Origin: Pseudomonadota bacterium
GTDB lineage: Bacteria > Pseudomonadota > Gammaproteobacteria > Burkholderiales > Rhodocyclaceae
Length of the DNA: 64,000 nucleotides
Direction: 5' to 3'
NCBI GenBank assembly: GCA_018240785.1
Contig: JAFEFC010000033.1
Span: 24,996 to 88,995, forward strand
Shown here: piece by piece, positions 38,486-63,426 of the stretch
Position numbering within the stretch: the stretch's first letter is position 1
Layout: the number at the start of each line of letters is the position of its first letter
The notes under the pieces: model-generated
What the model saw: only the letters and a program-made list of their open reading frames with translations
Database searches by the model: none
Told to the model about the DNA's origin: nothing
Program-made: the position numbers and the translations under genes

Positions 38486-39193
38486 TCAACCGGCGGCCGT
38501 GGCGGCCGCGTCCGCGCGGCGGACGTCCTGGCGCAGCGCGCCGTCTTCCATCAGCAACTGGCGGCGCGCGCGCGCGCCCATCGAGGGGTCGTGCGTGACC
38601 ACGATCAGCGTGGTGCCGCCGGCGTTGAGCGCCTCGAGCAGCGCGGTGACTTCCTGGCCGGTGGCGCGGTCGAGGTTGCCGGTGGGCTCGTCGGCCAGCA
38701 GCATCGCCGGCCGCATGATGGTGGCGCGCGCGATCGCCACGCGCTGGCGCTGGCCGCCCGACAGTTCCTCGGGGCGGTGGCCGGCGCGGCTTTCGAGGCC
38801 GAAGTCCTTCAGCGCGCGCTCGACGCGGCTGGCGCGCTCGGCCGGCGCCACGCCGGCCAGCATCAGCGGCAGGGCGATGTTCTCGGCGGCGGTGAGGCGC
38901 GGCACGAGATGAAAGCTCTGGAACACGAAGCCGATGCGGGCGCGCCGGACTTCGGCCTGCTCGTCGGCCGACAGCGTGGTGACGTCGCGCCCTTCCAGCC
39001 GGTAATGGCCGGCATCCGGGCGGTCGAGCAGGCCGAGCAGGTTCAGCAGGGTGGACTTGCCGGAGCCCGACGGGCCCATCACCGCGACGTATTCGCCGGC
39101 CTCGATCGACACCGACAGGTCGCGCAACGCGTGCACCTCGCTGTCGCCGAGGCGGAAGATGCGCTCGATGCCGCTCAACTCGATCTGCGCCAT
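38486..39193 (-). CDS. MacB/LolD-like ABC transporter ATP-binding protein
   Basis: A 235-residue ATPase. It shows Walker A GPSGSGKST, the Q-loop GFVFQSFHLVPRLTAAEN, signature LSGGQRQRVAIARA, Walker B MLLADEPTGNLD, and the H-loop VTHDP. The FHLVPRLTAAENI segment and the DEPTGNLD box place it in the LolD/MacB group. It energises the two permeases encoded directly downstream. The C-terminal tail is Ala/Arg-rich and probably unstructured. Confidence 0.94.
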   Translation of the reverse strand: MAQIELSGIERIFRLGDSEVHALRDLSVSIEAGEYVAVMGPSGSGKSTLLNLLGLLDRPDAGHYRLEGRDVTTLSADEQAEVRRARIGFVFQSFHLVPRLTAAENIALPLMLAGVAPAERASRVERALKDFGLESRAGHRPEELSGGQRQRVAIARATIMRPAMLLADEPTGNLDRATGQEVTALLEALNAGGTTLIVVTHDPSMGARARRQLLMEDGALRQDVRRADAAATAAG

Positions 39194-47018: not shown

Positions 47019-47035
47019 CGTCCGGATTTCGGACG
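47019..47035. promoter_or_regulatory. Palindromic upstream activator site before acxA
   Basis: CGTCCGGATTTCGGACG has perfect 6-bp inverted arms with a 5-base spacer. The same arrangement occurs twice before the sigma-54 activator gene at 54713. Its centre is about 130 bp upstream of the -24 element, a typical enhancer distance. Confidence 0.75.
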
Positions 47036-47154
47036 GCAATAGCGAAAACGGTCGGCCTACAGCGGCGGCACCGCTGCTGCGTTGCAGCGTGGTCGTGCCC
47101 TGAATGCTTTCGCCCAGCGTCTTCCGGGAATTTTGCGCTGCACATGCGCCGCCG

Positions 47155-47169
47155 TGGCATGCGGGTTGC
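47155..47169 (+). promoter_or_regulatory. Sigma-54 promoter of acxABC
   Basis: TGGCATGCGGGTTGC matches the -24/-12 consensus TGGCAC-N5-TTGC with the invariant GG and GC ten bases apart. Predicted start of transcription is near 47180, about 50 bp before the acxA ATG. Confidence 0.85.
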
Positions 47170-47231
47170 GATGAGGGAAGTGGTGCCAAGCACACCACCA
47201 GTCCATCCAACCAGAAGGAACGGAGACAACC

Positions 47232-49382
47232 ATGCAAGTCCAGACCGCATCACGGGTACAGGTGATGGGCATCGATGCCGGCGGCACGATGACCGACACC
47301 TTCTTCGTGCGCGACGACGGCCGCTTCGTCGTCGGCAAGGCGCAGAGCAATCCGGCGGACGAATCGCTCGCCATCTTCAATTCCTCGCAGGACGCGCTCG
47401 CCCACTGGGGGCGCGATGTCGACGAGGTCTATCCCGAGCTGGCGACCTGCGTCTATTCCGGCACCGCGATGCTCAACCGCATCCTGATGCGCAAGGGCCT
47501 CGACGTCGGCCTGATCTGCAACCGCGGCTTCGAGCAGATCCACTCGATGGGCCGCGCGCTGCAGAGCTACCTCGGCTATGCGCTGGAAGATCGCATCCAC
47601 CTCAACACCCACCGCTACGACGAGCCGCTGGTGCCGGTGTCGCGCACCCGTGGCGTGACCGAGCGCACCGACGTGCAGGGCAAGGTCGTGATCCCGCTGC
47701 GCGAGGAGGAAGTGCGCCAGGCGACGCGCGACCTGGTGGAAGCCGGTTCGCAGGCGATCGTGATCTGCCTGCTGCAGTCCCACAAGAACGAGAGCAGTGA
47801 GCAGCGCGCCCGCGACCTGGTCAGGGACGAGCTGAAGCGGCTCAAGGCGGATATCCCGGTGTTTGCGTCGGTGGATTACTACCCGTCGCGCAAGGAAAGC
47901 CACCGGATGAACACCACCATCCTGGAGGCCTACGGCGCCGAGCCTTCGCGTCAGACGCTGAAGAAGGTGAGCGACCGCTTCAAGAAGCACGGCGCGAAGT
48001 TCGACCTGCGCGTGATGGCCACGCACGGCGGCACGATCTCGTGGAAGGCCAAGGAGCTGGCCCGTACCATCGTCTCCGGCCCGATCGGCGGCGTCATCGG
48101 CTCCAAGCTGCTCGGCGAGTACCTGGGCGACGAGAACATCGCCTGCTCGGACATCGGCGGCACCTCCTTCGACGTCGCGCTGATCACCAAGGGCAGCTTC
48201 GCGATCAAGTCCGACCCCGACATGGCCCGCCTGGTGCTGTCGCTGCCGCTGGTCGCGATGGATTCGGTCGGCGCCGGTGCCGGCAGCTTCGTGCGCCTCG
48301 ACCCGTACAGCAAGTCGATCAAGCTCGGCCCGGACAGCGCCGGCTACCGCGTCGGCACCTGTTGGCCGGAAAGCGGCCTGGATACGGTGTCGGTGTCCGA
48401 CTGCCACGTCGTGCTGGGCTACCTCAACCCCGAGAACTTCCTCGGCGGCGCAATCAAGCTCGACGTGCAGCGCGCGCGCGACCACATCAAGGCGCAGATC
48501 GCCGATCCGCTCGGGCTGTCGGTGGAGGATGCGGCCGCGGGCGTGATCGAGCTGCTCGACCTGACGCTGTCCGAGTACCTGCGCGCCAACATCAGCGCCA
48601 AGGGCTACAACCCGGCCGAGTTCACCTGCTTCTCCTACGGCGGTGCCGGCCCGGTGCATACCTATGGCTATACCGAGGGCGTCGGCTTCAAGGACGTCGT
48701 GGTCCCTGCCTGGGCGGCCGGCTTCTCGGCCTTCGGCTGCGCCTGCGCCGACTTCGAGTATCGCTACGACAAGTCGGTCGACCTCGGCGTGGCCCAGTTC
48801 GCCGGCGATGCCGAGAAGGCGGCGGCCTGCGCCAGCCTCCAGCAAGCCTGGGAAGAGCTGGCGGTCAAGGTCATCGATGAGTTCGTGATCAACGGCTACA
48901 AGCCGGAAGACGTGATGCTGATCCCCGGCTACAAGATGCAGTACATGGGCCAGTTGAACGACCTCGAGATCGTCTCCCCGGTGTCCTCCGCGGCGACAGC
49001 GGCCGACTGGAACCAGATCATCGAGGCCTTCGAGAACACCTACGGCCGTGTCTATGCCAACTCGGCGCGTTCGCCGGAACTGGGTTTCTCGATCACCGGC
49101 GCGATCCTGCGCGGCATGGTCGTGACGCAGAAGCCGGTCCTGCCGGAAGACGCCGACTGCGGCCCGACGCCGCCGAAGGAAGCCTACCTGGGCACGCGCC
49201 CCTTCTACCGTCACAAGCGGTGGGTCGATGCCGCGCTGTGGAAGATGGAGTCGCTCAAGGCCGGCAACCACATCGTCGGTCCCGCGATCATCGAATCCGA
49301 CGCGACGACCTTCGTTGTGCCCGACGGCTTCGAGACGACGGTCGACAAGCACCGCCTGTTCCACCTTAAGGAAGTGAAGTAA
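47232..49382 (+). CDS. acxA: Acetone carboxylase beta subunit
   Basis: A 716-residue protein of the hydantoinase A/oxoprolinase family, almost exactly the length of Xanthobacter AcxA. The N-terminal nucleotide-binding fold shows GIDAGGTMTDTFF, and the second phosphate loop reads DIGGTSFDVALI. These are ATP-handling elements. With AcxB and AcxC it forms an alpha2beta2gamma2 enzyme that carboxylates acetone to acetoacetate using ATP. Related acetophenone carboxylases have a different subunit set, and the presence of acxC argues for acetone or butanone. An AAGGAACGGAG site precedes the ATG. Confidence 0.96.
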   Translation: MQVQTASRVQVMGIDAGGTMTDTFFVRDDGRFVVGKAQSNPADESLAIFNSSQDALAHWGRDVDEVYPELATCVYSGTAMLNRILMRKGLDVGLICNRGFEQIHSMGRALQSYLGYALEDRIHLNTHRYDEPLVPVSRTRGVTERTDVQGKVVIPLREEEVRQATRDLVEAGSQAIVICLLQSHKNESSEQRARDLVRDELKRLKADIPVFASVDYYPSRKESHRMNTTILEAYGAEPSRQTLKKVSDRFKKHGAKFDLRVMATHGGTISWKAKELARTIVSGPIGGVIGSKLLGEYLGDENIACSDIGGTSFDVALITKGSFAIKSDPDMARLVLSLPLVAMDSVGAGAGSFVRLDPYSKSIKLGPDSAGYRVGTCWPESGLDTVSVSDCHVVLGYLNPENFLGGAIKLDVQRARDHIKAQIADPLGLSVEDAAAGVIELLDLTLSEYLRANISAKGYNPAEFTCFSYGGAGPVHTYGYTEGVGFKDVVVPAWAAGFSAFGCACADFEYRYDKSVDLGVAQFAGDAEKAAACASLQQAWEELAVKVIDEFVINGYKPEDVMLIPGYKMQYMGQLNDLEIVSPVSSAATAADWNQIIEAFENTYGRVYANSARSPELGFSITGAILRGMVVTQKPVLPEDADCGPTPPKEAYLGTRPFYRHKRWVDAALWKMESLKAGNHIVGPAIIESDATTFVVPDGFETTVDKHRLFHLKEVK

Positions 49383-49393
49383 GGAGACACGCC

Positions 49394-51718
49394 ATGAACA
49401 TGATGACAAGCAAGGAAGTCGGCTTCGCCGACCTGCTCAAGAACGGCCAGACGCTCAAGCAGTTCCGCGACGGCATCATCGAGCGGACCCAGGCCAGCGG
49501 CCATTACAACGGGCTGCAGAAGCTGGAGTTCCGCGACAGTGACCCGATCGGCTACGAGAAGCTCTTCTCCAAGTTGCGCGGCGGTCTGGTGCATGCCCGC
49601 GAAACCGCCAAGAAGATCGCCGCGAGCCCCATCGTCGAGCAGGAAGGCGAGCTGTGCTTCACGCTCTACAACGCCGCAGGCGACTGCGTGCTGACCTCGA
49701 CCGGCATCATCATCCACGTCGGCACGATGGGCGCGGCGATCAAGTACATGATCGAGAACAACTGGGAAGGCAACCCCGGCATCAATCCCGGCGACATGTT
49801 CACCACCAACGACTGCGCGATCGGCAATGTGCACCCCTGCGACATCGCGACGATCGTGCCGATCTTCTGGGAAGGCCGGCTGATCGGCTGGGTGGGCGGC
49901 GTGACCCACGTGATCGACACCGGTGCGGTGACGCCGGGCTCGATGTCTACCGGCCAGACCCAGCGCTTTGGCGACGGCTACATGATCACCTGCCGCAAGA
50001 CCGGCGTGAACGACGAGCCGCTGCGCGACTGGCTGCACGAGTCGCAGCGCTCGGTACGCACGCCGAAGTACTGGATCCTCGACGAGAAGACCCGCATCGC
50101 CGGCTGCCACATGATCCGCGAGCTGGTCGAGGACGTGATCCGCGCCGACGGCATCGAGGCCTACGAGAAGTTCGCCTTCGAAGTCATCGAGGAAGGCCGC
50201 CGCGGGCTGATGAGCCGCATCAAGGCGATGACCCTGCCGGGCAAGTACCGCAAGGTGTCCTTCGTCGATGTGCCCTTCAAGCATGAAGACGTGCAGGTGT
50301 CGAACGCCTTCGCCAAGCTCGACTCGATCATGCACTCGCCGTGCGAGATGACGATCCGGCCGGACGGCAAGTGGAGGCTGGACTTCGAGGGCGCGAGCCG
50401 TTGGGGCTGGCATACCTTCAATGCCCACCAGGTGGCCTTCACCTCGGGCATCTGGGTGATGATGTGCCAGACGCTGGTGCCGACGCAGCGCATCAACGAC
50501 GGCGCCTACTACGCCACCGAGTTCCGCCTGCCCAAGGGCACCTGGTGCAACCCGGACGACCGTCGCACCGGCCACGCCTATGCCTGGCACTTCCTGGTCT
50601 CGGGCTGGGCGGCGCTGTGGCGCGGCCTGTCGCAGTCCTACTTCAGCCGCGGCTACCTGGAAGAGGTTAACGCCGGCAACGCCAACACCTCGAACTGGCT
50701 GCAGGGCGGCGGCATCAACCAGGACGGCGAGATCCACGCGGTCAATAGCTTCGAAGCCTCGAGCTGCGGCACCGGTGCGTGCGCGGTCAAGGACGGCCTC
50801 AACCATGCCGCCGCGATCTGGAACCCCGAAGGCGACATGGGCGACATCGAGATCTGGGAGATGGCCGAGCCGCTCCTGTATCTGGGCCGCAACGTCAAGG
50901 CCAACTCCGGGGGCTATGGCAAGTACCGCGGCGGCTGCGGCTTCGAGACCCTGCGCATGGTGTGGAACGCCCAGGACTGGACGATGTTCTTCATGGGCAA
51001 CGGCTTCATGAACAGCGACTGGGGGATGATGGGCGGTTACCCGTCGGCGACCGGCTACCGCTTCGAAGCGCACAAGACCGGCCTGGAGCAGCGCATCGCC
51101 ATCGGTGACTCGCTGCCGCTCGGGGGTGACATCGATCCGGCCCATCCGGACTACGAGCGCCACATCGACGCGACCGCCGTGGTCAAGCGCGACAAGCAGT
51201 GCATGACCACCGAGGACTGCTATGACAACCACGACCTGTACCTGAACTACCTGCGCGGCGGCCCCGGTTTCGGCGACCCGATCGACCGCGAGCCGAAGGC
51301 GATCGAGAACGACCTGAACCAGAAGTTCCTGCTGCCCGAATACGCGCAGAAGGTCTATGGCGCGGTGTTCACGCAGGACGCCAAGGGCGTGTTCTCGGTC
51401 GATCCCGCGAAGACGCAGGCCCGCCGTGCCGAAATCCGCAAGGAGCGTCTGGCCCGTGCGCTGCCGACCCGCGAGTGGATGAAGGAAGAGCGCGAACGCA
51501 TCGTGAATAAGCATGCCGCTGTGCAGGTGCAGCACATGTTCGCGACGAGCTTCGCACTGTCGGAAAAATTCACGAACGAGTTCAAGGCCTTCTGGAGCCT
51601 GCCGGCCGACTGGCAGCTGCTGGAGGAAGAACTGGGCGTGCCGTCCTACGGCTCGAAGCACCGCATGGACCTGTCGCTGCTGCCCGACGTCACGACCGTC
51701 GTCCAGGTCGAAGAGTGA
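49394..51718 (+). CDS. acxB: Acetone carboxylase alpha subunit
   Basis: A 774-residue hydantoinase B-family protein, matching the about 776 residues of known AcxB. Conserved stretches include GTMGAAIKYMIENNW, GDMFTTNDCAIGNVHPCD and VTHVIDTGAVTPGSMST. In the Xanthobacter structure this subunit carries the Mn site and the carboxylation centre; the His/Asp-rich blocks DCAIGNVHPCDI would supply ligands here. The ATG has an AAGGAGA site, 11 bp after acxA. It acts in the cytoplasm in the three-subunit complex. Confidence 0.96.
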   Translation: MNMMTSKEVGFADLLKNGQTLKQFRDGIIERTQASGHYNGLQKLEFRDSDPIGYEKLFSKLRGGLVHARETAKKIAASPIVEQEGELCFTLYNAAGDCVLTSTGIIIHVGTMGAAIKYMIENNWEGNPGINPGDMFTTNDCAIGNVHPCDIATIVPIFWEGRLIGWVGGVTHVIDTGAVTPGSMSTGQTQRFGDGYMITCRKTGVNDEPLRDWLHESQRSVRTPKYWILDEKTRIAGCHMIRELVEDVIRADGIEAYEKFAFEVIEEGRRGLMSRIKAMTLPGKYRKVSFVDVPFKHEDVQVSNAFAKLDSIMHSPCEMTIRPDGKWRLDFEGASRWGWHTFNAHQVAFTSGIWVMMCQTLVPTQRINDGAYYATEFRLPKGTWCNPDDRRTGHAYAWHFLVSGWAALWRGLSQSYFSRGYLEEVNAGNANTSNWLQGGGINQDGEIHAVNSFEASSCGTGACAVKDGLNHAAAIWNPEGDMGDIEIWEMAEPLLYLGRNVKANSGGYGKYRGGCGFETLRMVWNAQDWTMFFMGNGFMNSDWGMMGGYPSATGYRFEAHKTGLEQRIAIGDSLPLGGDIDPAHPDYERHIDATAVVKRDKQCMTTEDCYDNHDLYLNYLRGGPGFGDPIDREPKAIENDLNQKFLLPEYAQKVYGAVFTQDAKGVFSVDPAKTQARRAEIRKERLARALPTREWMKEERERIVNKHAAVQVQHMFATSFALSEKFTNEFKAFWSLPADWQLLEEELGVPSYGSKHRMDLSLLPDVTTVVQVEE

Positions 51719-51740
51719 TCACCGAATCAAGGAGCCGGAA

Positions 51741-52247
51741 ATGACTACGTACACCAATGAACAGGTCGCCCACCTCGTCGAGGGTTCGCTCGACTGGGAG
51801 ACCACCTTCCGCATGCTGTCGATGCCCAAGGACAACAGCCGCTTCGAGCAGTACCTGAAGGCGCTGCAGGCCAAGGTCAGCTTCAAGGACAAGATCGTGC
51901 TGCCGCTCGGGCCGCATCTCTACATCGTGCAATCGGCCAAGACCAAGCAGTGGGTCACCCAGTGCGACTGCGGCCACGTGTTCGGCGACTATCGCGAAAA
52001 CTGGAAGCTGCACGCCGCTATCTACGTGCGCGACACCGAGGAAGCGATGACCGAGGTGTATCCGAAGCTGATGGCGCCGGACACGCAGTGGCAGGTTTAT
52101 CGCGAGTACTACTGCCCCACCTGCGGCACGATGCACGACGTCGAGGCGCCCACGCCGTGGTACCCGGTGATCCATGACTTCGAGCCCGACATCGAGGCCT
52201 TCTACAAGGAGTGGGTGGGCCTGCCGGTGCCGGAACGCGCCGACTGA
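51741..52247 (+). CDS. acxC: Acetone carboxylase gamma subunit
   Basis: A 168-residue subunit, the family length. Four cysteines, Cys75 and Cys77 (QCDCGHVFG), and Cys125 and Cys128 (YCPTCGTMHD), form a likely zinc site, as in the solved enzyme. The ATG at 51741 follows AAGGAG, 22 bp after acxB. A very stable hairpin begins 5 bp after its stop and separates it from the ligase gene. Confidence 0.96.
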   Translation: MTTYTNEQVAHLVEGSLDWETTFRMLSMPKDNSRFEQYLKALQAKVSFKDKIVLPLGPHLYIVQSAKTKQWVTQCDCGHVFGDYRENWKLHAAIYVRDTEEAMTEVYPKLMAPDTQWQVYREYYCPTCGTMHDVEAPTPWYPVIHDFEPDIEAFYKEWVGLPVPERAD

Positions 52248-52251
52248 GGCC

Positions 52252-52282
52252 AACAGCGCGGCGCGATCCGCGCCGCGCTGTT
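52252..52282. terminator. Strong hairpin between acxC and the ligase gene
   Basis: AACAGCGCGGCGCG (52252-52265) pairs perfectly with CGCGCCGCGCTGTT (52269-52282) around ATC: a 14-bp stem. It begins five bases after the acxC stop. Only a short T-containing tail follows, so it may be a partial terminator or an mRNA-stabilising processing element that lowers ligase expression relative to acxABC. Confidence 0.7.
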
Positions 52283-52307
52283 CTCTCGGACATTGCAAGG
52301 GAACAGC

Positions 52308-54329
<2,022 letters not shown>

Positions 54330-54343
54330 ATCGTCGTCCAGGC

Positions 54344-54360
54344 CGTCCGGTTTTCGGACG
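54344..54360. promoter_or_regulatory. Activator palindrome before acxR, site 1
   Basis: CGTCCGGTTTTCGGACG: perfect 6-bp arms, 5-base spacer, identical arms to the site before acxA. Confidence 0.72.
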
Positions 54361-54376
54361 CCGTCCGTGCGGCGGC

Positions 54377-54393
54377 CGTTCGAAAATCGGACG
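54377..54393. promoter_or_regulatory. Activator palindrome before acxR, site 2
   Basis: CGTTCGAAAATCGGACG: same architecture with one arm mismatch. Its centre is 33 bp (about three helical turns) from site 1, so dimers bound at both would face the same side of the DNA. Confidence 0.68.
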
Positions 54394-54520
54394 GTCGTCG
54401 CACGGGTGGCTGCCCGCGTGCCTTCCTGTCTCGTCTCATGCGGGGCCTTCGGTCGCGCGAAGCCCGATTCTGCCGCCGGCGGCGACTGCGCTGCCGATCC
54501 CCTGCCCAGGCTGGGGTTTT

Positions 54521-54535
54521 TGGCATTGCCTTTGC
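54521..54535 (+). promoter_or_regulatory. Sigma-54 promoter of acxR
   Basis: TGGCATTGCCTTTGC matches TGGCAC-N5-TTGC with correctly spaced GG and GC. It implies that the activator gene is itself sigma-54 dependent and autoactivated. Confidence 0.82.
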
Positions 54536-54712
54536 TATTCTTCAAGTCGAGGTGCGATGCGTCCGCCGTGCGGCTACGCATCGCGCCGGCCGGTCGCCCG
54601 ATTCCGGGCGGCTGCAGCACACCGGAACCGATGCGGCAGAACTGACAGGGATCTCAACCCTCCGGTCGCACACAGCGACCCGCCGCGTTGCGTTTTCGCG
54701 AGGAGGAGAGAC

Positions 54713-56746
<2,034 letters not shown>

Positions 56747-56793: not shown

Positions 56794-58833
<2,040 letters not shown>

Positions 58834-58960
58834 CGGTCTCCTCCGTTCCGGTCTCTGGTCGGCCGGAATTCTCTGGGGCACGGTCGAGCGCGACTGCCGC
58901 GCCGCAGCGCTCGCTGCCGTACCTGAAGACTATGTGCGCTGGTGTGCCAAGGCAATGCGT

Positions 58961-58990
58961 ACACGTGTCTCATGCGGGTGAGACAGGTGT
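58961..58990. promoter_or_regulatory. AcoR-type upstream activator palindrome
   Basis: ACACGTGTCTCA (58961-58972) and TGAGACAGGTGT (58979-58990) are inverted arms matching at 11 of 12 positions around TGCGGG; the inner TGTCTCA/TGAGACA is perfect. Its centre is about 174 bp from the -24 element of the acoX promoter. Confidence 0.78.
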
Positions 58991-59147
58991 GATCCGTGAC
59001 CGCCTCGTCGAGGCATCTGTCCGCTCAGGGCAGCACACCGAATGTGGCGGCAACTCGCCATCCGGATTCCGGTTGAGGTTCGCAGTGCATTGATTTACAT
59101 ATGAAATTGCGCGATCAGCCGAATTACCCGGCGATCCGTTGCGCGCC

Positions 59148-59162
59148 GGGCACGACTCCTGC
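59148..59162 (+). promoter_or_regulatory. Sigma-54 promoter of acoXABC
   Basis: GGGCACGACTCCTGC has the invariant GG and GC ten bases apart and GGCACG as in the consensus; T is replaced at the -26 and -15 positions. Transcription would start near 59173, about 25 bp before the acoX GTG. Confidence 0.72.
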
Positions 59163-59197
59163 CTCGGGAAGGTCAAGTACGCCGTCCAGGAGCCACC

Positions 59198-60313
59198 GTG
59201 GCCAGCACCGTGCAGCGCGACATCACCGTCGGCATCATCGCCAACCCGGCATCCGGGCGCGACATTCGCCGCCTGACGGCCAAGGCCTCGGTCTTTCCCA
59301 CCGCGGAGAAGGCCAACATGATCCAGCGCCTGCTTGGCCCCCTGGGGCGGCTCGGCGTGGGCCGGGTGCTGATGATGCCGGACATGACCGGCATCGCCGC
59401 CGGCGTGCTGCGCGCGGTGCAGACGCATCACGCTTCCCGCCTGCCACCGTGGCCCAGGGTGGACTTCCTCGACATGAAGCTCGCCGGTGACGCCTCCGAC
59501 AGTGCCCGCGCCGCAGGGCTGATCCATCAGGCGGGCGCGGCGCTGGTGGTGGTCCTGGGCGGAGACGGCACCCACCGCGTGGTGGCCGATGCCTGTGACG
59601 AGCTGCCGATGGCCACGCTGTCGACCGGCACCAACAACGTCTTTCCCGATCTGCGCGAAGCCACCGTCACCGGCCTCGCCGCTGCGCTCTTCGCCACCGG
59701 GCGGGTGGCGGCCGACGACGCGCTGAAGCGCAACAAGCGCCTGGTGGTGAGCGTGGGCGCGCGGCGCGAGATCGCCCTCGTCGATGCCTGCGTGACCCGC
59801 CTCGACCACGTCGGCGCCCGCGCGGTGTGGGATCCGGCGACCATCGCCGAGCTCTACGTGAGCTTTGCCGAGCCCGACGCCATCGGCCTGTCGGCGATCG
59901 CCGCGGCAGTGGCGCCGGTGGCGCGGGATGCCGCGTACGGCCTGCGGGTGTGCTGCGGCGCGGGCGGTCGCCCGGTGCTGGCACCGATCGCGCCCGGCGT
60001 GCTCGCCGAACTGCCGGTGACGCTGGTCGAGCCGCTGCTGCCGGACGTGGATTACCCGGTGGCCGCGCTGCGCGGCTCCATCGCCCTCGACGGCGAGCGC
60101 GAGATCGAGCTCGGCGAAACCAGCCAGGCGTCGCTGCGCCTCGACCTGCACGGTCCGCTAACCCTCGACGTTCCCGCCACGCTCGCTGCCGCAGCGCGCG
60201 CGGGAGGCGCGCCGGGGCAGCCCGGCCTGCCGTTTTCAGTTGCTGCGCCATCCCCAGGAGGATGGCCGCATCCGGTCGATTCGACCACCCACCAAGGAAG
60301 GAGACAGACGTGA
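59198..60313 (+). CDS. acoX: AcoX, ATP-NAD kinase-like protein of the acetoin operon
   Basis: A 371-residue protein of the NAD kinase/diacylglycerol kinase fold. The nucleotide motif GGDGTHR lies near residue 125, with TGTNNVF after it; the N terminus (VGIIANPASGRDIRRL) is a typical start. AcoX is found in aco operons of betaproteobacteria but its reaction is unknown. The start is a GTG at 59198 after AGGAG. Its stop overlaps the acoA start (GTGA). Confidence 0.92.
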   Translation: MASTVQRDITVGIIANPASGRDIRRLTAKASVFPTAEKANMIQRLLGPLGRLGVGRVLMMPDMTGIAAGVLRAVQTHHASRLPPWPRVDFLDMKLAGDASDSARAAGLIHQAGAALVVVLGGDGTHRVVADACDELPMATLSTGTNNVFPDLREATVTGLAAALFATGRVAADDALKRNKRLVVSVGARREIALVDACVTRLDHVGARAVWDPATIAELYVSFAEPDAIGLSAIAAAVAPVARDAAYGLRVCCGAGGRPVLAPIAPGVLAELPVTLVEPLLPDVDYPVAALRGSIALDGEREIELGETSQASLRLDLHGPLTLDVPATLAAAARAGGAPGQPGLPFSVAAPSPGGWPHPVDSTTHQGRRQT

Positions 60314-61284
60314 CCAGCACGCTCAATCGCGAAGGCCTGCTCAAGGCCTACCGGACGATGCGCACCATCCGCGAGTTCGAGGAAAGGGTGCATGCCGACT
60401 TCGCCACCGGCGAAATCCCCGGCTTCGTACACCTCTACGCCGGCGAGGAGGCCTCGGCCACCGGCGTGTGCATGCACCTCGACCGCAAGGACTACATCGC
60501 CAGCACCCACCGCGGCCACGGCCACTGCATCGCCAAGGGCGTGGATCCGGTGGGCATGATGGCCGAGATCTGGGGCAAGGCCACCGGCACCTGCAAGGGC
60601 AAGGGCGGCTCGATGCACATCGCCGATCTGTCGGTGGGCATGCTCGGCGCCAACGGCATCGTCGGCGGCGGCGGGCCACTGATCTGCGGCACTGCGCTGG
60701 CGGGCAAGCTGCGCGGCGACCGTTCGGTGGGCGTGTGCTTCTTCGGCGACGGCGCCTCCAACCAGGGCACCATCTTCGAGGCGATGAACCTGGCCACGGT
60801 GTGGAACCTGCCGGCGATCTTCGTAGCCGAGAACAACGGCTATGCCGAAGCCACCTCCAGCAACTATTCGGTGGCCTGCGACAACATCGCCGACCGCGCC
60901 TCGGCGTTCGGCATGCCCGGCGTGATCGTCGATGGCTTCGACTTCTTCGCCGTGCACGAAGCCGCGGGCGAGGCCATCGAGCGCGCCCGCAACGGCGGCG
61001 GCCCCACCCTGCTGGAAGTGAAGGTGTCCCGCTACTACGGCCATTTCGAGGGCGACCAGCAGCGCTACCGCGCAGCGGGCGAGGTGCAGGCTTTGCGCGA
61101 AACCCGCGACTGCCTGCTGCAGTTCCGCCGCCGCGTCACCGCCAGCGGCGAGATCACCGAGGCGCAGCTCGACGCTATCGATGCCGAAGTGAAGGCGCTG
61201 ATCGACGATTCGGTGGCCAAGGCCAAGGCCGACCCCAAGCCGGCCGCCGCCGACCTGATGACCGATGTGTACGTGAGCTACTGA
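60310..61284 (+). CDS. acoA: Acetoin dehydrogenase E1 component, alpha subunit
   Basis: A 324-residue thiamine-diphosphate enzyme subunit. The TPP motif is GDGASNQGTIFEAMNLATVW (GDG to N), and the phosphorylation-loop-like RYYGHFEGDQQRYR region is present. It pairs with AcoB to cleave acetoin to acetaldehyde and a hydroxyethyl group passed to AcoC. A GTG at 60310 overlaps the acoX stop, with AAGGAG upstream. Confidence 0.95.
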   Translation: MTSTLNREGLLKAYRTMRTIREFEERVHADFATGEIPGFVHLYAGEEASATGVCMHLDRKDYIASTHRGHGHCIAKGVDPVGMMAEIWGKATGTCKGKGGSMHIADLSVGMLGANGIVGGGGPLICGTALAGKLRGDRSVGVCFFGDGASNQGTIFEAMNLATVWNLPAIFVAENNGYAEATSSNYSVACDNIADRASAFGMPGVIVDGFDFFAVHEAAGEAIERARNGGGPTLLEVKVSRYYGHFEGDQQRYRAAGEVQALRETRDCLLQFRRRVTASGEITEAQLDAIDAEVKALIDDSVAKAKADPKPAAADLMTDVYVSY

Positions 61285-61303
61285 CAGGACCGAGGAGACG
61301 ACC

Positions 61304-62314
61304 ATGGCAAGAAAGATCACTTACCAGCAGGCCATCAACGAGGCCCTGGACCAGGAGATGAGCCGCGATCCGTCCGTGATCGTGATGGGCGAGGACAACG
61401 CCGGCGGGGCGGGCGCGCCGGGCGAGGAGGATGCCTGGGGCGGCGTGCTCGGCGTCACCAAGGGCCTCTTCCACAAGCATCCGGGCCGCGTGCTCGACAC
61501 GCCGATCTCGGAGTCGGGATTCATCGGCGCCGCGGTGGGGGCGGCCTGCAACGGACTGCGTCCGGTAGCCGAACTCATGTTCGTGGATTTCATGGGCGTA
61601 TGCCTGGACCAGATCTTCAACCAGGCGGCCAAGTTCAAGTACATGTTCGGCGGCAAGGCGCAGACGCCGGTGGTGATCCGCACCATGTACGGCGCCGGCT
61701 TCCGTGCCGCGGCCCAGCACTCGCAGTGCCTCTACAACGTCTTCACCCACATTCCGGGGCTGAAGGTGGTGGTGCCCTCCAACCCCTACGACGCCAAGGG
61801 CCTGCTGATCCAGGCGATCCGTGACAACGACCCGGTGATCTTCATGGAGCACAAGGTGCTCTACACGATGCAGGGCGAAGTGCCCGAGGAGAGCTACGCG
61901 ATTCCCTTCGGTGAGGCCAACGTGCTGCGCGAAGGCGACGACGTCACCATCGTGGCCTTCGGCCGCATGGTGAACTTCGCCAGCGAAGCGGCGGCTGCGG
62001 CGCAGAAGAAGGGCGTGCATTGCGAGGTCATCGATCCGCGCACCACGTCGCCGCTGGACGAGGACACCATCCTCGAGAGCGTGGAGAAGACCGGCCGCCT
62101 GGTCGTGGTGGACGAGTCCAACCCGCGCTGCAGCATGGCCAGCGACATCGCCGGCCTGGTGGCGCAGAAGGCCTTCGGGGCGCTCAAGGCGCCCATCGAG
62201 CTGGTCACCGCGCCGCATGTGCCGGTGCCGTTCAGCGATGCGCTGGAGGATCTCTACGTGCCCAGCGTGGCCCGCATCGAGGCGGCCATCATCAAAGCGA
62301 AGGAGTACAAGTGA
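61304..62314 (+). CDS. acoB: Acetoin dehydrogenase E1 component, beta subunit
   Basis: A 336-residue subunit. It has the transketolase pyrimidine-binding domain (VIVMGEDN, ETPISESGFIGAAVGAACNG-like block at about 67-85 reading DTPISESGFIG) and the C-terminal domain with VVVDESNPRCS. It completes the active site for TPP with AcoA. A GAGGAG site precedes ATG 61304. Its stop overlaps the acoC start. Confidence 0.95.
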   Translation: MARKITYQQAINEALDQEMSRDPSVIVMGEDNAGGAGAPGEEDAWGGVLGVTKGLFHKHPGRVLDTPISESGFIGAAVGAACNGLRPVAELMFVDFMGVCLDQIFNQAAKFKYMFGGKAQTPVVIRTMYGAGFRAAAQHSQCLYNVFTHIPGLKVVVPSNPYDAKGLLIQAIRDNDPVIFMEHKVLYTMQGEVPEESYAIPFGEANVLREGDDVTIVAFGRMVNFASEAAAAAQKKGVHCEVIDPRTTSPLDEDTILESVEKTGRLVVVDESNPRCSMASDIAGLVAQKAFGALKAPIELVTAPHVPVPFSDALEDLYVPSVARIEAAIIKAKEYK

Positions 62315-63426
62315 TGTCGCGCATCCACACCCTCACCATGCCGAAGTGGGGCCTTTCGATGAAGGAGGGCAAGGTCAATGGCTGGCTCCGGAAGCTCGGC
62401 GAGCCGGTCGCGGTCGGCGACGAGATCATCGAAGTCGAGAGCGAGAAGATCGCCGGCGGCATCGAGTCTCCGGTGGCCGGCGTGCTGCGCCGGCAACTGG
62501 CGAAGGCGGAGGACGTGCTGCCGGTGGGCGGCCTGCTCGGCATCGTCGCCGACGCCGAGGTGCCCGATGCCGAGATCGACGCTGCGGTAGAAGCCTTCAA
62601 CGCGAGTTTCGTGCCGCTAAGCGAGGAGGGCGAGGAAGCCGGTCCCGGCACGCAGACGGTCGAGGTGGGCGGGCGCCGCATCCGCTTCCTGAAGCGCGGC
62701 TCGGGCGGCGAGCCCATGGTGCTCATCCATGGCTTCGGCGGCGATCTCAACAACTGGCTCTTCAACCACGAGGCGCTGGCCGCCGGGCGCGCGGTGTATG
62801 CGCTCGACCTGCCGGGGCATGGCGAGTCGGTGAAGGAGGTGGGCGATGGCAGCCTGGGTACGCTGGCCGACGTGGTGCTTGGCTTCATGGACAGCCAGGG
62901 CCTGCAGGCCGCGCACCTGGCGGGCCACTCGATGGGCGGTGCGGTATCCCTCGCGATCGCCGGCAAGGCGCCGCAGCGGGTGCATTCGCTGACCCTGATC
63001 GGCAGCGCGGGGCTGGGCGAGGAGATCAACGCCGGCTACATCGACGGCTTCGTCTCCGCCGCGGACCGGCGCACGCTCAAGCCGCTGCTGACTCAGCTCT
63101 TCGCCGACGAGAGCCTGGTCACCCGCCAACTGGTCGACGACATCCTCAAGTACAAGCGGCTCGAGGGCGTGGATGCGGCGCTCGCCGCGATCTCCGCTGC
63201 GCTGTTCGACGAAGGCCGCCAGAAGACGGTGCTGGCCGAGCTGCCCGAGCGGCTGGGCAAGCCGGTGCTGGCGATCTGGGGCGCGGAGGACCGCATCATC
63301 CCGGTGAAGCACGCTCCCAGGGCCGCTGGCGAGGTACGCGTGGAAGTGCTGCCGGGCAAGGGGCACATGGTGCAGATGGAAGCCGCCAACGAGGTGAACC
63401 GGCTCATCGATCACTTCCTGTCCTGA
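62314..63426 (+). CDS. acoC: Acetoin dehydrogenase E2: lipoyl domain fused to alpha/beta hydrolase-type acetyltransferase
   Basis: A 370-residue AcoC. The N-terminal lipoyl domain carries the target Lys45 in EVESEKIAGG. After a short acidic linker (about 100-115) comes an alpha/beta hydrolase domain, with nucleophile Ser206 in GHSMGG and the catalytic His in GKGHMV. This replaces the usual trimer-forming E2 catalytic domain and is the known form of AcoC. No E3-binding domain is visible and no acoL gene follows. A strong terminator lies downstream. Confidence 0.94.
   Translation: MSRIHTLTMPKWGLSMKEGKVNGWLRKLGEPVAVGDEIIEVESEKIAGGIESPVAGVLRRQLAKAEDVLPVGGLLGIVADAEVPDAEIDAAVEAFNASFVPLSEEGEEAGPGTQTVEVGGRRIRFLKRGSGGEPMVLIHGFGGDLNNWLFNHEALAAGRAVYALDLPGHGESVKEVGDGSLGTLADVVLGFMDSQGLQAAHLAGHSMGGAVSLAIAGKAPQRVHSLTLIGSAGLGEEINAGYIDGFVSAADRRTLKPLLTQLFADESLVTRQLVDDILKYKRLEGVDAALAAISAALFDEGRQKTVLAELPERLGKPVLAIWGAEDRIIPVKHAPRAAGEVRVEVLPGKGHMVQMEAANEVNRLIDHFLS

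What the first reader, a model, noticed from the sequence alone, without database searches (positions are those of the whole stretch)
47019..54393. Shared palindrome CGTCCG-N5-CGGACG marks a sigma-54 acetone regulon
The same 17-bp palindrome appears once before acxA (47019-47035) and twice before acxR (54344-54360 and 54377-54393), always upstream of a good -24/-12 promoter. The arms are identical in two of the three copies, and the acxR pair is 33 bp apart. Such a shared element strongly suggests it is the binding site of the activator encoded at 54713, giving activation of acxABC and positive autoregulation. I do not know of a described operator sequence for acetone carboxylase activators.
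Basis: partly seen in the sequence, partly recalled or inferred. Interest (0 to 1): 0.78.

Follow-up and report, generated by a model that had tools for sequence, protein, structure and literature searches.

The report
DNA switch site for acetone-use genes
A short mirror-image DNA sequence sits in front of both the acetone-degrading genes and the gene for their controller, recurs at corresponding places in related bacteria, and is very probably the controller's landing site: an ordinary kind of gene switch whose sequence I did not find described.

Summary
Three 17-bp palindromes lie at 47019, 54344 and 54377, each upstream of a good -24/-12 (sigma-54) promoter, in front of acxA (one) and acxR (two, 33 bp apart). 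Arms alone are weak evidence in this GC-rich DNA, but with the AT-rich spacer included (CGTYCG-RWWWY-CGRACG) the 4.7-Mb genome holds three exact matches, all here, and none at one mismatch. A matrix trained only on acxR-side sites finds a site upstream of acxA in 20 of 20 genomes examined (9 genera), in 12 of them 129-132 bp from the -24 box. On the acxR side a site is present in 17 of 22, in 15 as a pair; the closest relative (91% AcxR) lacks it, so autoregulation is the less conserved part. Several remoter AcxR loci, Cupriavidus metallidurans included, have a TGTCC-N7-GGACA version. Best reading: the enhancer (UAS) of AcxR, a GAF-AAA+-Fis sigma-54 activator, driving acxABC and acxR. That AcxR controls acxABC is known; I found no described operator in my paper searches. 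The acxR-side copies tend to be reverse complements of each other, deviant bases included: suggestive, not proved. Binding is untested.

The parts
47019..47035 (.). AcxR operator (UAS) of acxA, strong site CGTCCGGATTTCGGACG
   Evidence: exact refined motif; matrix score 24.8; centre 129 bp from the -24 box; a site upstream of acxA in 20 of 20 regions examined
47038..47054 (.). possible weak companion site AATAGCGAAAACGGTCG, 19 bp from the strong site
   Evidence: poor absolute score (-11.4), but above all 9 control spacing blocks in the window; a companion at 17-21 bp outranks all control blocks in 15 of 21 acxA regions
47155..47169 (+). -24/-12 (sigma-54) promoter of acxA, TGGCATGCGGGTTGC
47232..49382 (+). 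acxA, acetone carboxylase subunit (hydantoinase A family)
   Evidence: 91% and 93% identical to AcxA of two Cupriavidus species
49394..51718 (+). acxB, acetone carboxylase subunit (hydantoinase B family)
51741..52247 (+). acxC, acetone carboxylase gamma subunit
   Evidence: PF08882, E 2.7e-57
52308..54329 (+). AMP-forming acyl-CoA synthetase, by inference acetoacetyl-CoA synthetase of the same operon
   Evidence: best NCBIfam models acetate-, propionate- and acetoacetate-CoA ligase, those shown all below cut-off; a homologue lies in the same stretch in 18 of 21 orthologue loci L111-L131
54344..54360 (.). AcxR operator, distal acxR-side copy CGTCCGGTTTTCGGACG
54377..54393 (.). AcxR operator, proximal acxR-side copy CGTTCGAAAATCGGACG, 33 bp from the distal copy
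54360..54410 (+). 24-pair RNA hairpin centred on the proximal copy (five of its pairs are G-U by my reading of the arms); possible second layer of function or by-product of palindrome repair
   Evidence: -53.7 kcal/mol for 54330-54410, z -6.35, 0 of 200 shuffles fold as well
54521..54535 (+). -24/-12 (sigma-54) promoter of acxR, TGGCATTGCCTTTGC
54713..56746 (+). acxR (TTG start): GAF - sigma-54 AAA+ with GAFTGA - Fis-type HTH activator

Best explanation
The 17-bp palindrome is the upstream activating sequence (enhancer) of AcxR, the sigma-54-dependent activator encoded at 54713-56746. Dimers of its C-terminal Fis-type HTH bind the 6-5-6 palindrome, CGTYCG-RWWWY-CGRACG. On sensing acetone or a related ketone, presumably through the GAF domain, AcxR assembles its AAA+ ring on one strong (perhaps plus one weak) site about 130 bp upstream of the acxA -24 box, or on two strong sites upstream of acxR, loops to the sigma-54 polymerase, and opens both promoters. 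This turns on acxABC with the linked acyl-CoA synthetase and, through acxR itself, amplifies the response. Shown here: the sites, their genome-wide exclusivity, their conservation and spacing, the promoters, the GAFTGA and HTH of AcxR, and the co-occurrence of motif and AcxR. Known for relatives: AcxR is needed for acetone carboxylase. Inferred: the binding itself, the signal, the operon structure, and autoregulation in this organism.
For: Refined motif in own genome: 3 exact places, all at acx. acxA side, matrix trained only on acxR-side sites: 20 of 20 regions score at least 9.6, where 5 sites of 9.5 or more occur in 426 kb of other DNA of the same loci, that is 0.0033 per 280 bp; centre to -24 distance 129-132 bp in 12, 144 in one and 100-109 in seven. 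acxR side: 15 of 22 orthologue loci have a pair 30-33 bp apart and 2 a single site, 16 of these 17 above a TGGCAY-N5-TTGCT promoter and one above AGGCAT-N5-TTGCT. Motif and close AcxR co-occur over 199 genomes, p = 8e-11. In the alignment the activators with CGTYCG-type sites read AKST[LV]Y in the recognition helix, while remoter AcxRs whose sites have a T-A outer pair on at least one side read [SA]RSTLY. AcxR has GAF, sigma-54 AAA+ and HTH_8 domains with GAFTGA. [quoted passage not shown]
Against: No binding or expression data. Only 8 of the 20 acxA sites match CGTYCG-N5-CGRACG exactly; 7 have one mismatch, 4 have two (L118, L119, L123, L125) and L117 has three (L117 counted by hand). The closest relative examined (L111, AcxR 91%) has the acxR -24/-12 but no operator there; L128-L131 have neither an acxR-side operator nor a -24/-12 with fewer than 3 mismatches. 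Ten of 168 genomes without a close AcxR have one exact motif each; the stretches of 4.5-18 kb fetched around them show no acxA. AcxR-like regulators of 49-55% identity L003, L005, L007, L157 and L158, and L134-L140, show no site upstream of themselves, and of 10 plasmid-borne acx loci two (L150, L151) show none. The outer base rule has exceptions: one copy in L122, L132, L141 and L143 carries a T-A outer pair although the helix reads AKST. The acxR-side counts are partly circular, since those sites trained the matrix. Caution from a related system: for the butanol activator BmoR the inverted repeat first taken as its site could be deleted with little effect (PMC8899819, passages seen).
Confidence: 0.86

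Rival explanations
1. The acxR-side pair works mainly as RNA: a hairpin at the 3' end of the acxABC-synthetase transcript (terminator, insulator or stabiliser) rather than as an operator.
For: The first copy starts 15 nt after the synthetase stop codon; 54330-54410 folds with z -6.35 and a 24-pair stem; in many of the 24 loci folded the two copies pair as a long stem; in 8 of 10 loci checked a co-directional open frame precedes acxR, the other two gave no clear gene.
Against: The same element occurs upstream of acxA, where in the window the preceding gene is on the other strand, and a like element occurs in the divergent acxR-acxA regions of L002 and L147; no terminator-like match at the pair; folding energy is lower on the acxR strand in only 9 of 24 loci, and G-U mismatches between copies (20) outnumber A-C ones (9) only modestly, a count that includes the mis-picked pair of L142; in L144 the pair lies about 500 bp past the upstream stop.
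Confidence: 0.06
2. The palindrome is bound by another regulator, for example the neighbouring AcoR-like activator (56794-58881) or a repressor, not by AcxR.
For: The AcoR-like gene lies next to acxR and also encodes a sigma-54 activator.
Against: No exact or one-mismatch motif lies near the acetoin genes; the nearest is a two-mismatch match at 61559 inside a coding region. The motif follows close AcxRs over 199 genomes; the HTH letters of AcxR change largely together with the operator type. The test by presence of AcoR did not separate the two: the 5 same-genus genomes searched have neither a close AcoR nor a close AcxR.
Confidence: 0.06
3. A chance or structural repeat without regulatory role.
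For: Arms alone are at chance in the window when mismatches are allowed.
Against: Genome-wide exclusivity and conservation at set promoter distances.
Confidence: 0.02

Closest known systems
AcxR of Xanthobacter autotrophicus Py2 and Cupriavidus metallidurans CH34 (sigma-54 activator of acxABC)
   Same: GAFTGA motif in both, and for CH34 a sigma-54 promoter TGGCATG-N4-TTGC in the acxRA intergenic region (PMC2864759, passages), the form also seen before acxA here. The CH34 divergent region holds TGTCCGGATTCCGGACA.
   Different: CH34 AcxR is only 42% identical and divergent from acxABC; here acxR lies downstream of acxABC plus a synthetase in the same direction. The operator outer base pair is C-G here and T-A there. 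I found no operator described for either; the 2002 X. autotrophicus paper (PMC135078) is not held and was not seen.
GAF/PAS-AAA+-Fis activators with several UAS sites (AdhR and others of Clostridiales)
   Same: Multiple UAS sites upstream of a sigma-54 promoter; for AdhR disrupting any one of three UAS severely impaired promoter activity (PMC7017808, passages).
   Different: Fifteen clostridial groups, AdhR included, use TGT-N10-12-ACA; clostridial AcoR has a distinct motif whose letters I did not see (PMC6615313, passages).
NtrC enhancers
   Same: 6-5-6 palindrome of 17 bp, paired sites, action at a distance (recalled, no call).
   Different: Different letters; NtrC answers a histidine kinase (recalled), AcxR has a GAF domain.

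Membership tests
Bacterial enhancer-binding proteins (sigma-54 activators) | AAA+ sigma-54 interaction domain with GAFTGA loop | tested here: met
   PF00158 E 4e-61; [13 protein letters not shown]
Bacterial enhancer-binding proteins (sigma-54 activators) | Fis-type HTH at the C-terminus | tested here: met
   PF02954 at 629-665
Bacterial enhancer-binding proteins (sigma-54 activators) | -24/-12 promoter at the target with a UAS some 80-200 bp upstream (range recalled) | tested here: met
   centre to -24: 129 bp at acxA, 137 bp for the proximal acxR site
Bacterial enhancer-binding proteins (sigma-54 activators) | Binds the UAS and hydrolyses ATP to open the promoter | not testable with these tools
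   needs purified protein
AcxR, activator of acetone carboxylase | Linked to acxABC and homologous to named AcxRs | tested here: met
   acxABC in the same cluster; 42% identity to the regulator divergent from acxA in CH34
AcxR, activator of acetone carboxylase | Required for acetone-induced acxABC expression | not testable with these tools
   reported for CH34 in PMC11886801 (passages), not for this organism
AcxR operator (proposed here) | Motif conserved upstream of acxA in genomes with close AcxR | tested here: met
   matrix score at least 9.6 in 20 of 20 regions examined; exact pattern in 8 of 20
AcxR operator (proposed here) | Motif conserved upstream of acxR (autoregulation) | tested here: inconclusive
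   17 of 22; absent in L111 and L128-L131
Intrinsic terminator | GC-rich stem followed by a run of T | tested here: not met
   no such match at the pair in 54200-54800; the one match is at 54500

The most novel reading that the evidence does not exclude
The two acxR-side operator copies evolve in concert as one large inverted repeat: each copy is kept as the reverse complement of the other, deviant bases included, rather than each being kept self-symmetric, perhaps through template-switch repair of hairpin-prone DNA or because the pair is also selected as a hairpin. If so, a bacterial enhancer pair shows gene-conversion-like homogenisation.
Probability: 0.35. Interest if true: 0.55.

Novelty: new member of a known kind. 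Interest (0 to 1): 0.45.

Why it matters
It gives a concrete, testable operator for acetone-carboxylase activators, lets acetone and ketone regulons be predicted from genome sequence, offers parts for acetone biosensors, and suggests which recognition-helix letters go with which operator type. The mechanism itself is textbook sigma-54 activation.

Tried and rejected
Arms-only pattern with mismatches in the window: not enriched, so the AT-rich spacer was added. One search translated the regulator in the wrong frame; corrected. The first sigma-54 scan had an indexing error in my script and found nothing; repeated correctly. A looser pattern in five genomes gave hundreds of matches per genome and was not used.

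RNA-terminator reading: considered because the acxR pair follows the synthetase stop codon and folds strongly; rejected as the main function. Test of AcoR as binder by presence and absence in same-genus genomes: uninformative, since none of the five has either protein in close form.

Concerted evolution of the pair: 25 loci have a pair, 21 distinct; mirror mismatches 1.95 within pairs against 4.07 between genomes, 0 of 20000 shuffles as low; complementary at variable positions 99 of 120 between copies against 56 of 120 within copies over 20 distinct pairs (four repeats of an identical pair dropped, and L142 dropped because the script had picked its second and third sites, though it is still in the figures). 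Relatedness-aware controls are weaker: nearest-copy neighbours 1.65 against 2.37, p = 0.12; within-genus permutations 14 of 216 as low, using 9 loci of three genera. Left as suggestive.

Paper searches for a described operator. Only searches listed all the papers found (4 and 22); the others listed 20 each of 369, 604, 3413, 754 and 23. I saw passages of PMC2864759, PMC8899819, PMC8784404, PMC7017808, PMC6615313, PMC12849132, PMC3621897, PMC11886801 and PMC2244623; a term search in PMC4630880 gave no match. No AcxR operator was found in these. Most subscription papers are not held, so this is not proof of absence.

Full report
What is there. Reading the two regions shows the three palindromes at the stated places. 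They lie upstream of acxA (47232) and acxR (54713, TTG start), with -24/-12 elements TGGCATGCGGGTTGC at 47155 and TGGCATTGCCTTTGC at 54521. Pfam identifies the genes between as acetone carboxylase subunits (hydantoinase A and B families and the gamma subunit PF08882) and an AMP-forming acyl-CoA synthetase; the regulator is a GAF - sigma-54 AAA+ - Fis HTH protein with an intact GAFTGA. A second sigma-54 activator, AcoR-like by its place beside an acetoin dehydrogenase gene, sits tail to tail at 56794-58881.

Is it more than chance? Arms with two mismatches are at chance in the window (15 found, 16.2 expected). The discriminating feature is the AT-rich centre. CGTYCG-N5-CGRACG has five places in the 4.7-Mb genome, three of them here; CGTYCGRWWWYCGRACG has three, all here, none at one mismatch and 25 at two. 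The predicted regulon in this genome is therefore acxABC (with the synthetase) and acxR only.

Conservation. In 199 family genomes, 40 have a relative of AcxR at E 1e-150 or better. Of the 31 with a close one (54% identity or more), 18 carry the exact refined motif, against 10 of the other 168 (Fisher p = 8e-11, not corrected for relatedness). I fetched 4.5-18 kb around the motif in those ten: none shows acxA. I fetched 36 stretches of up to 20 kb from genomes and used seven named ones (L001-L007, the first seven of 80 loci, best-segment identity 50-71%). For the 22 orthologues of 59% or more (own included, 9 genera), acxR-side sites are found in 17: a pair 30-33 bp apart in 15 and one site in 2; L111 and L128-L131 have none. 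A matrix trained on acxR-side sites only, and so independent of acxA, finds a site upstream of acxA in 20 of 20 genomes whose acxA upstream region I held (scores 9.6 to 26.9; 0.0033 sites of 9.5 or more expected per 280 bp). Against the plain pattern CGTYCG-N5-CGRACG, 8 of the 20 are exact, 7 have one mismatch, 4 have two and L117 has three. For the other two of the 22 (L120 and L122, contigs that end before the start of acxA) the region was not held. The centre of the acxA site lies 129-132 bp from the -24 G in 12 genomes, 144 in one and 100-109 in seven. A weaker companion at 17-21 bp outranks all control blocks in 15 of 21 acxA regions (in the window its absolute score is poor). Over the window and L111-L146, sites scoring 12 or more number 60 in 26.5 kb of acxA and acxR upstream DNA and 27 in 709 kb elsewhere (partly circular for acxR). 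Outside the family, AcxR at E 1e-180 was found in 2 of 368 other genomes drawn from the class; one of the two (L158) has an exact site 165 bp before acxA, and neither has one before its regulator.

Wider family. Ten plasmid-borne acx loci were read (10 of the 20 listed from 62 records). Eight of ten have a related dyad near acxA or the regulator: TGTCCGGATTCCGGACA in C. metallidurans CH34, TGTCCGATTTCCGGACA in C. pinatubonensis, TGTCCAGAATTCGGACA in Paraburkholderia sp. PGU19, TGTCCGAAAACCGGACA in Paracoccus yeei, a CGTYCG type at both genes in Paraburkholderia phymatum, and C...A hybrids in Ancylobacter, Rhodovulum and Paracoccus sp. MA; L150 and L151 have none. Activators with CGTYCG sites read AKST[LV]Y in the recognition helix; those with a T-A outer pair on at least one side read [SA]RSTLY, except that the helix of PGU19 was not seen and that one copy in L122, L132, L141 and L143 has a T-A outer pair with AKST. 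This covariation is confounded with phylogeny. AcxR-like regulators of 53-59% identity without acxABC in the fetched stretch (15 loci, L132-L146) have the motif upstream of themselves in 8 of 15; in L132 a further site lies before a thiolase, ligase and CoA-transferase cluster, so cross-talk between ketone regulons is possible in genomes that hold both kinds.

How it probably works. AcxR dimers bind the 17-bp dyads; the ketone signal (inferred) licenses the AAA+ ring, which loops to sigma-54 polymerase and opens PacxA and PacxR. For C. metallidurans the need for acxR in acetone carboxylase production is reported (PMC11886801, passages seen), and control of X. autotrophicus acxABC by sigma-54 and AcxR is stated in PMC2244623 (passage seen). 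That AcxR binds this element is inferred, not shown. A caution: in the BmoR system an inverted repeat first taken as the binding site could be deleted with little effect on the butanol response (PMC8899819, passages seen).

The mirrored pair. On the acxR side the two copies are exact reverse complements, deviations from the consensus included, in 7 of 25 loci with a pair (L113, L118, L119, L121, L123, L125, L144). In the window the proximal copy sits in a 24-pair RNA hairpin. Shuffles over all genomes are strongly significant, but controls that respect relatedness are not decisive (p = 0.12; 14 of 216). Template-switch repair of hairpins, selection as an RNA hairpin, or shared ancestry could each account for it.

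Novelty. In the papers I could search (five of these seven listed only 20 of the papers found) I found sigma-54 control of acx but no operator sequence; the 2002 X. autotrophicus paper is not held. I therefore file the element as a new member of a known kind: a UAS of a GAF-type sigma-54 activator.

Noticed in passing
47077-47087 and acxA upstream regions of relatives: A TGC dyad CTGC-N3-GCAG lies between operator and promoter of acxA; exact or near copies are marked in 7 of 25 acxA regions printed (window, L111, L117, L125, L162-L164). The form resembles PhaR (polyhydroxyalkanoate regulator) sites as I recall them; the window has 5 such exact matches in all.
   Followed up: partly
L151, L152, L155, L156: The regulators beside acx genes in four Rhodobacterales plasmid loci lack the GAFTGA loop, and no -24/-12 within 3 mismatches precedes acxA there: perhaps sigma-54-independent relatives of AcxR, three of them with a similar dyad nearby.
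   Followed up: no
L132, L133, L135-L138, L140-L143: AcxR-like proteins in these ten loci have GSFTGA instead of GAFTGA.
   Followed up: no
L112 and its genus (G137, G192, G167, G044, G100): acxA lies about 15.5 kb upstream of acxR; in L112 the stretch between holds an MMPL transporter, DUF1302, DUF1329, the synthetase and two CoA-transferase subunits, suggesting a long ketone-use operon.
   Followed up: partly
window 56794-63426: AcoR-like activator and acetoin dehydrogenase genes directly beside acxR; no exact AcxR-type motif there.
   Followed up: partly
window 38509-38525: A fourth exact-arm palindrome with GC spacer (CGTCCGCGCGGCGGACG), 28 bp before the start of a reverse-strand open frame that looks like an ABC-transporter permease by my reading; no sign of a link to acx.
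   Followed up: no
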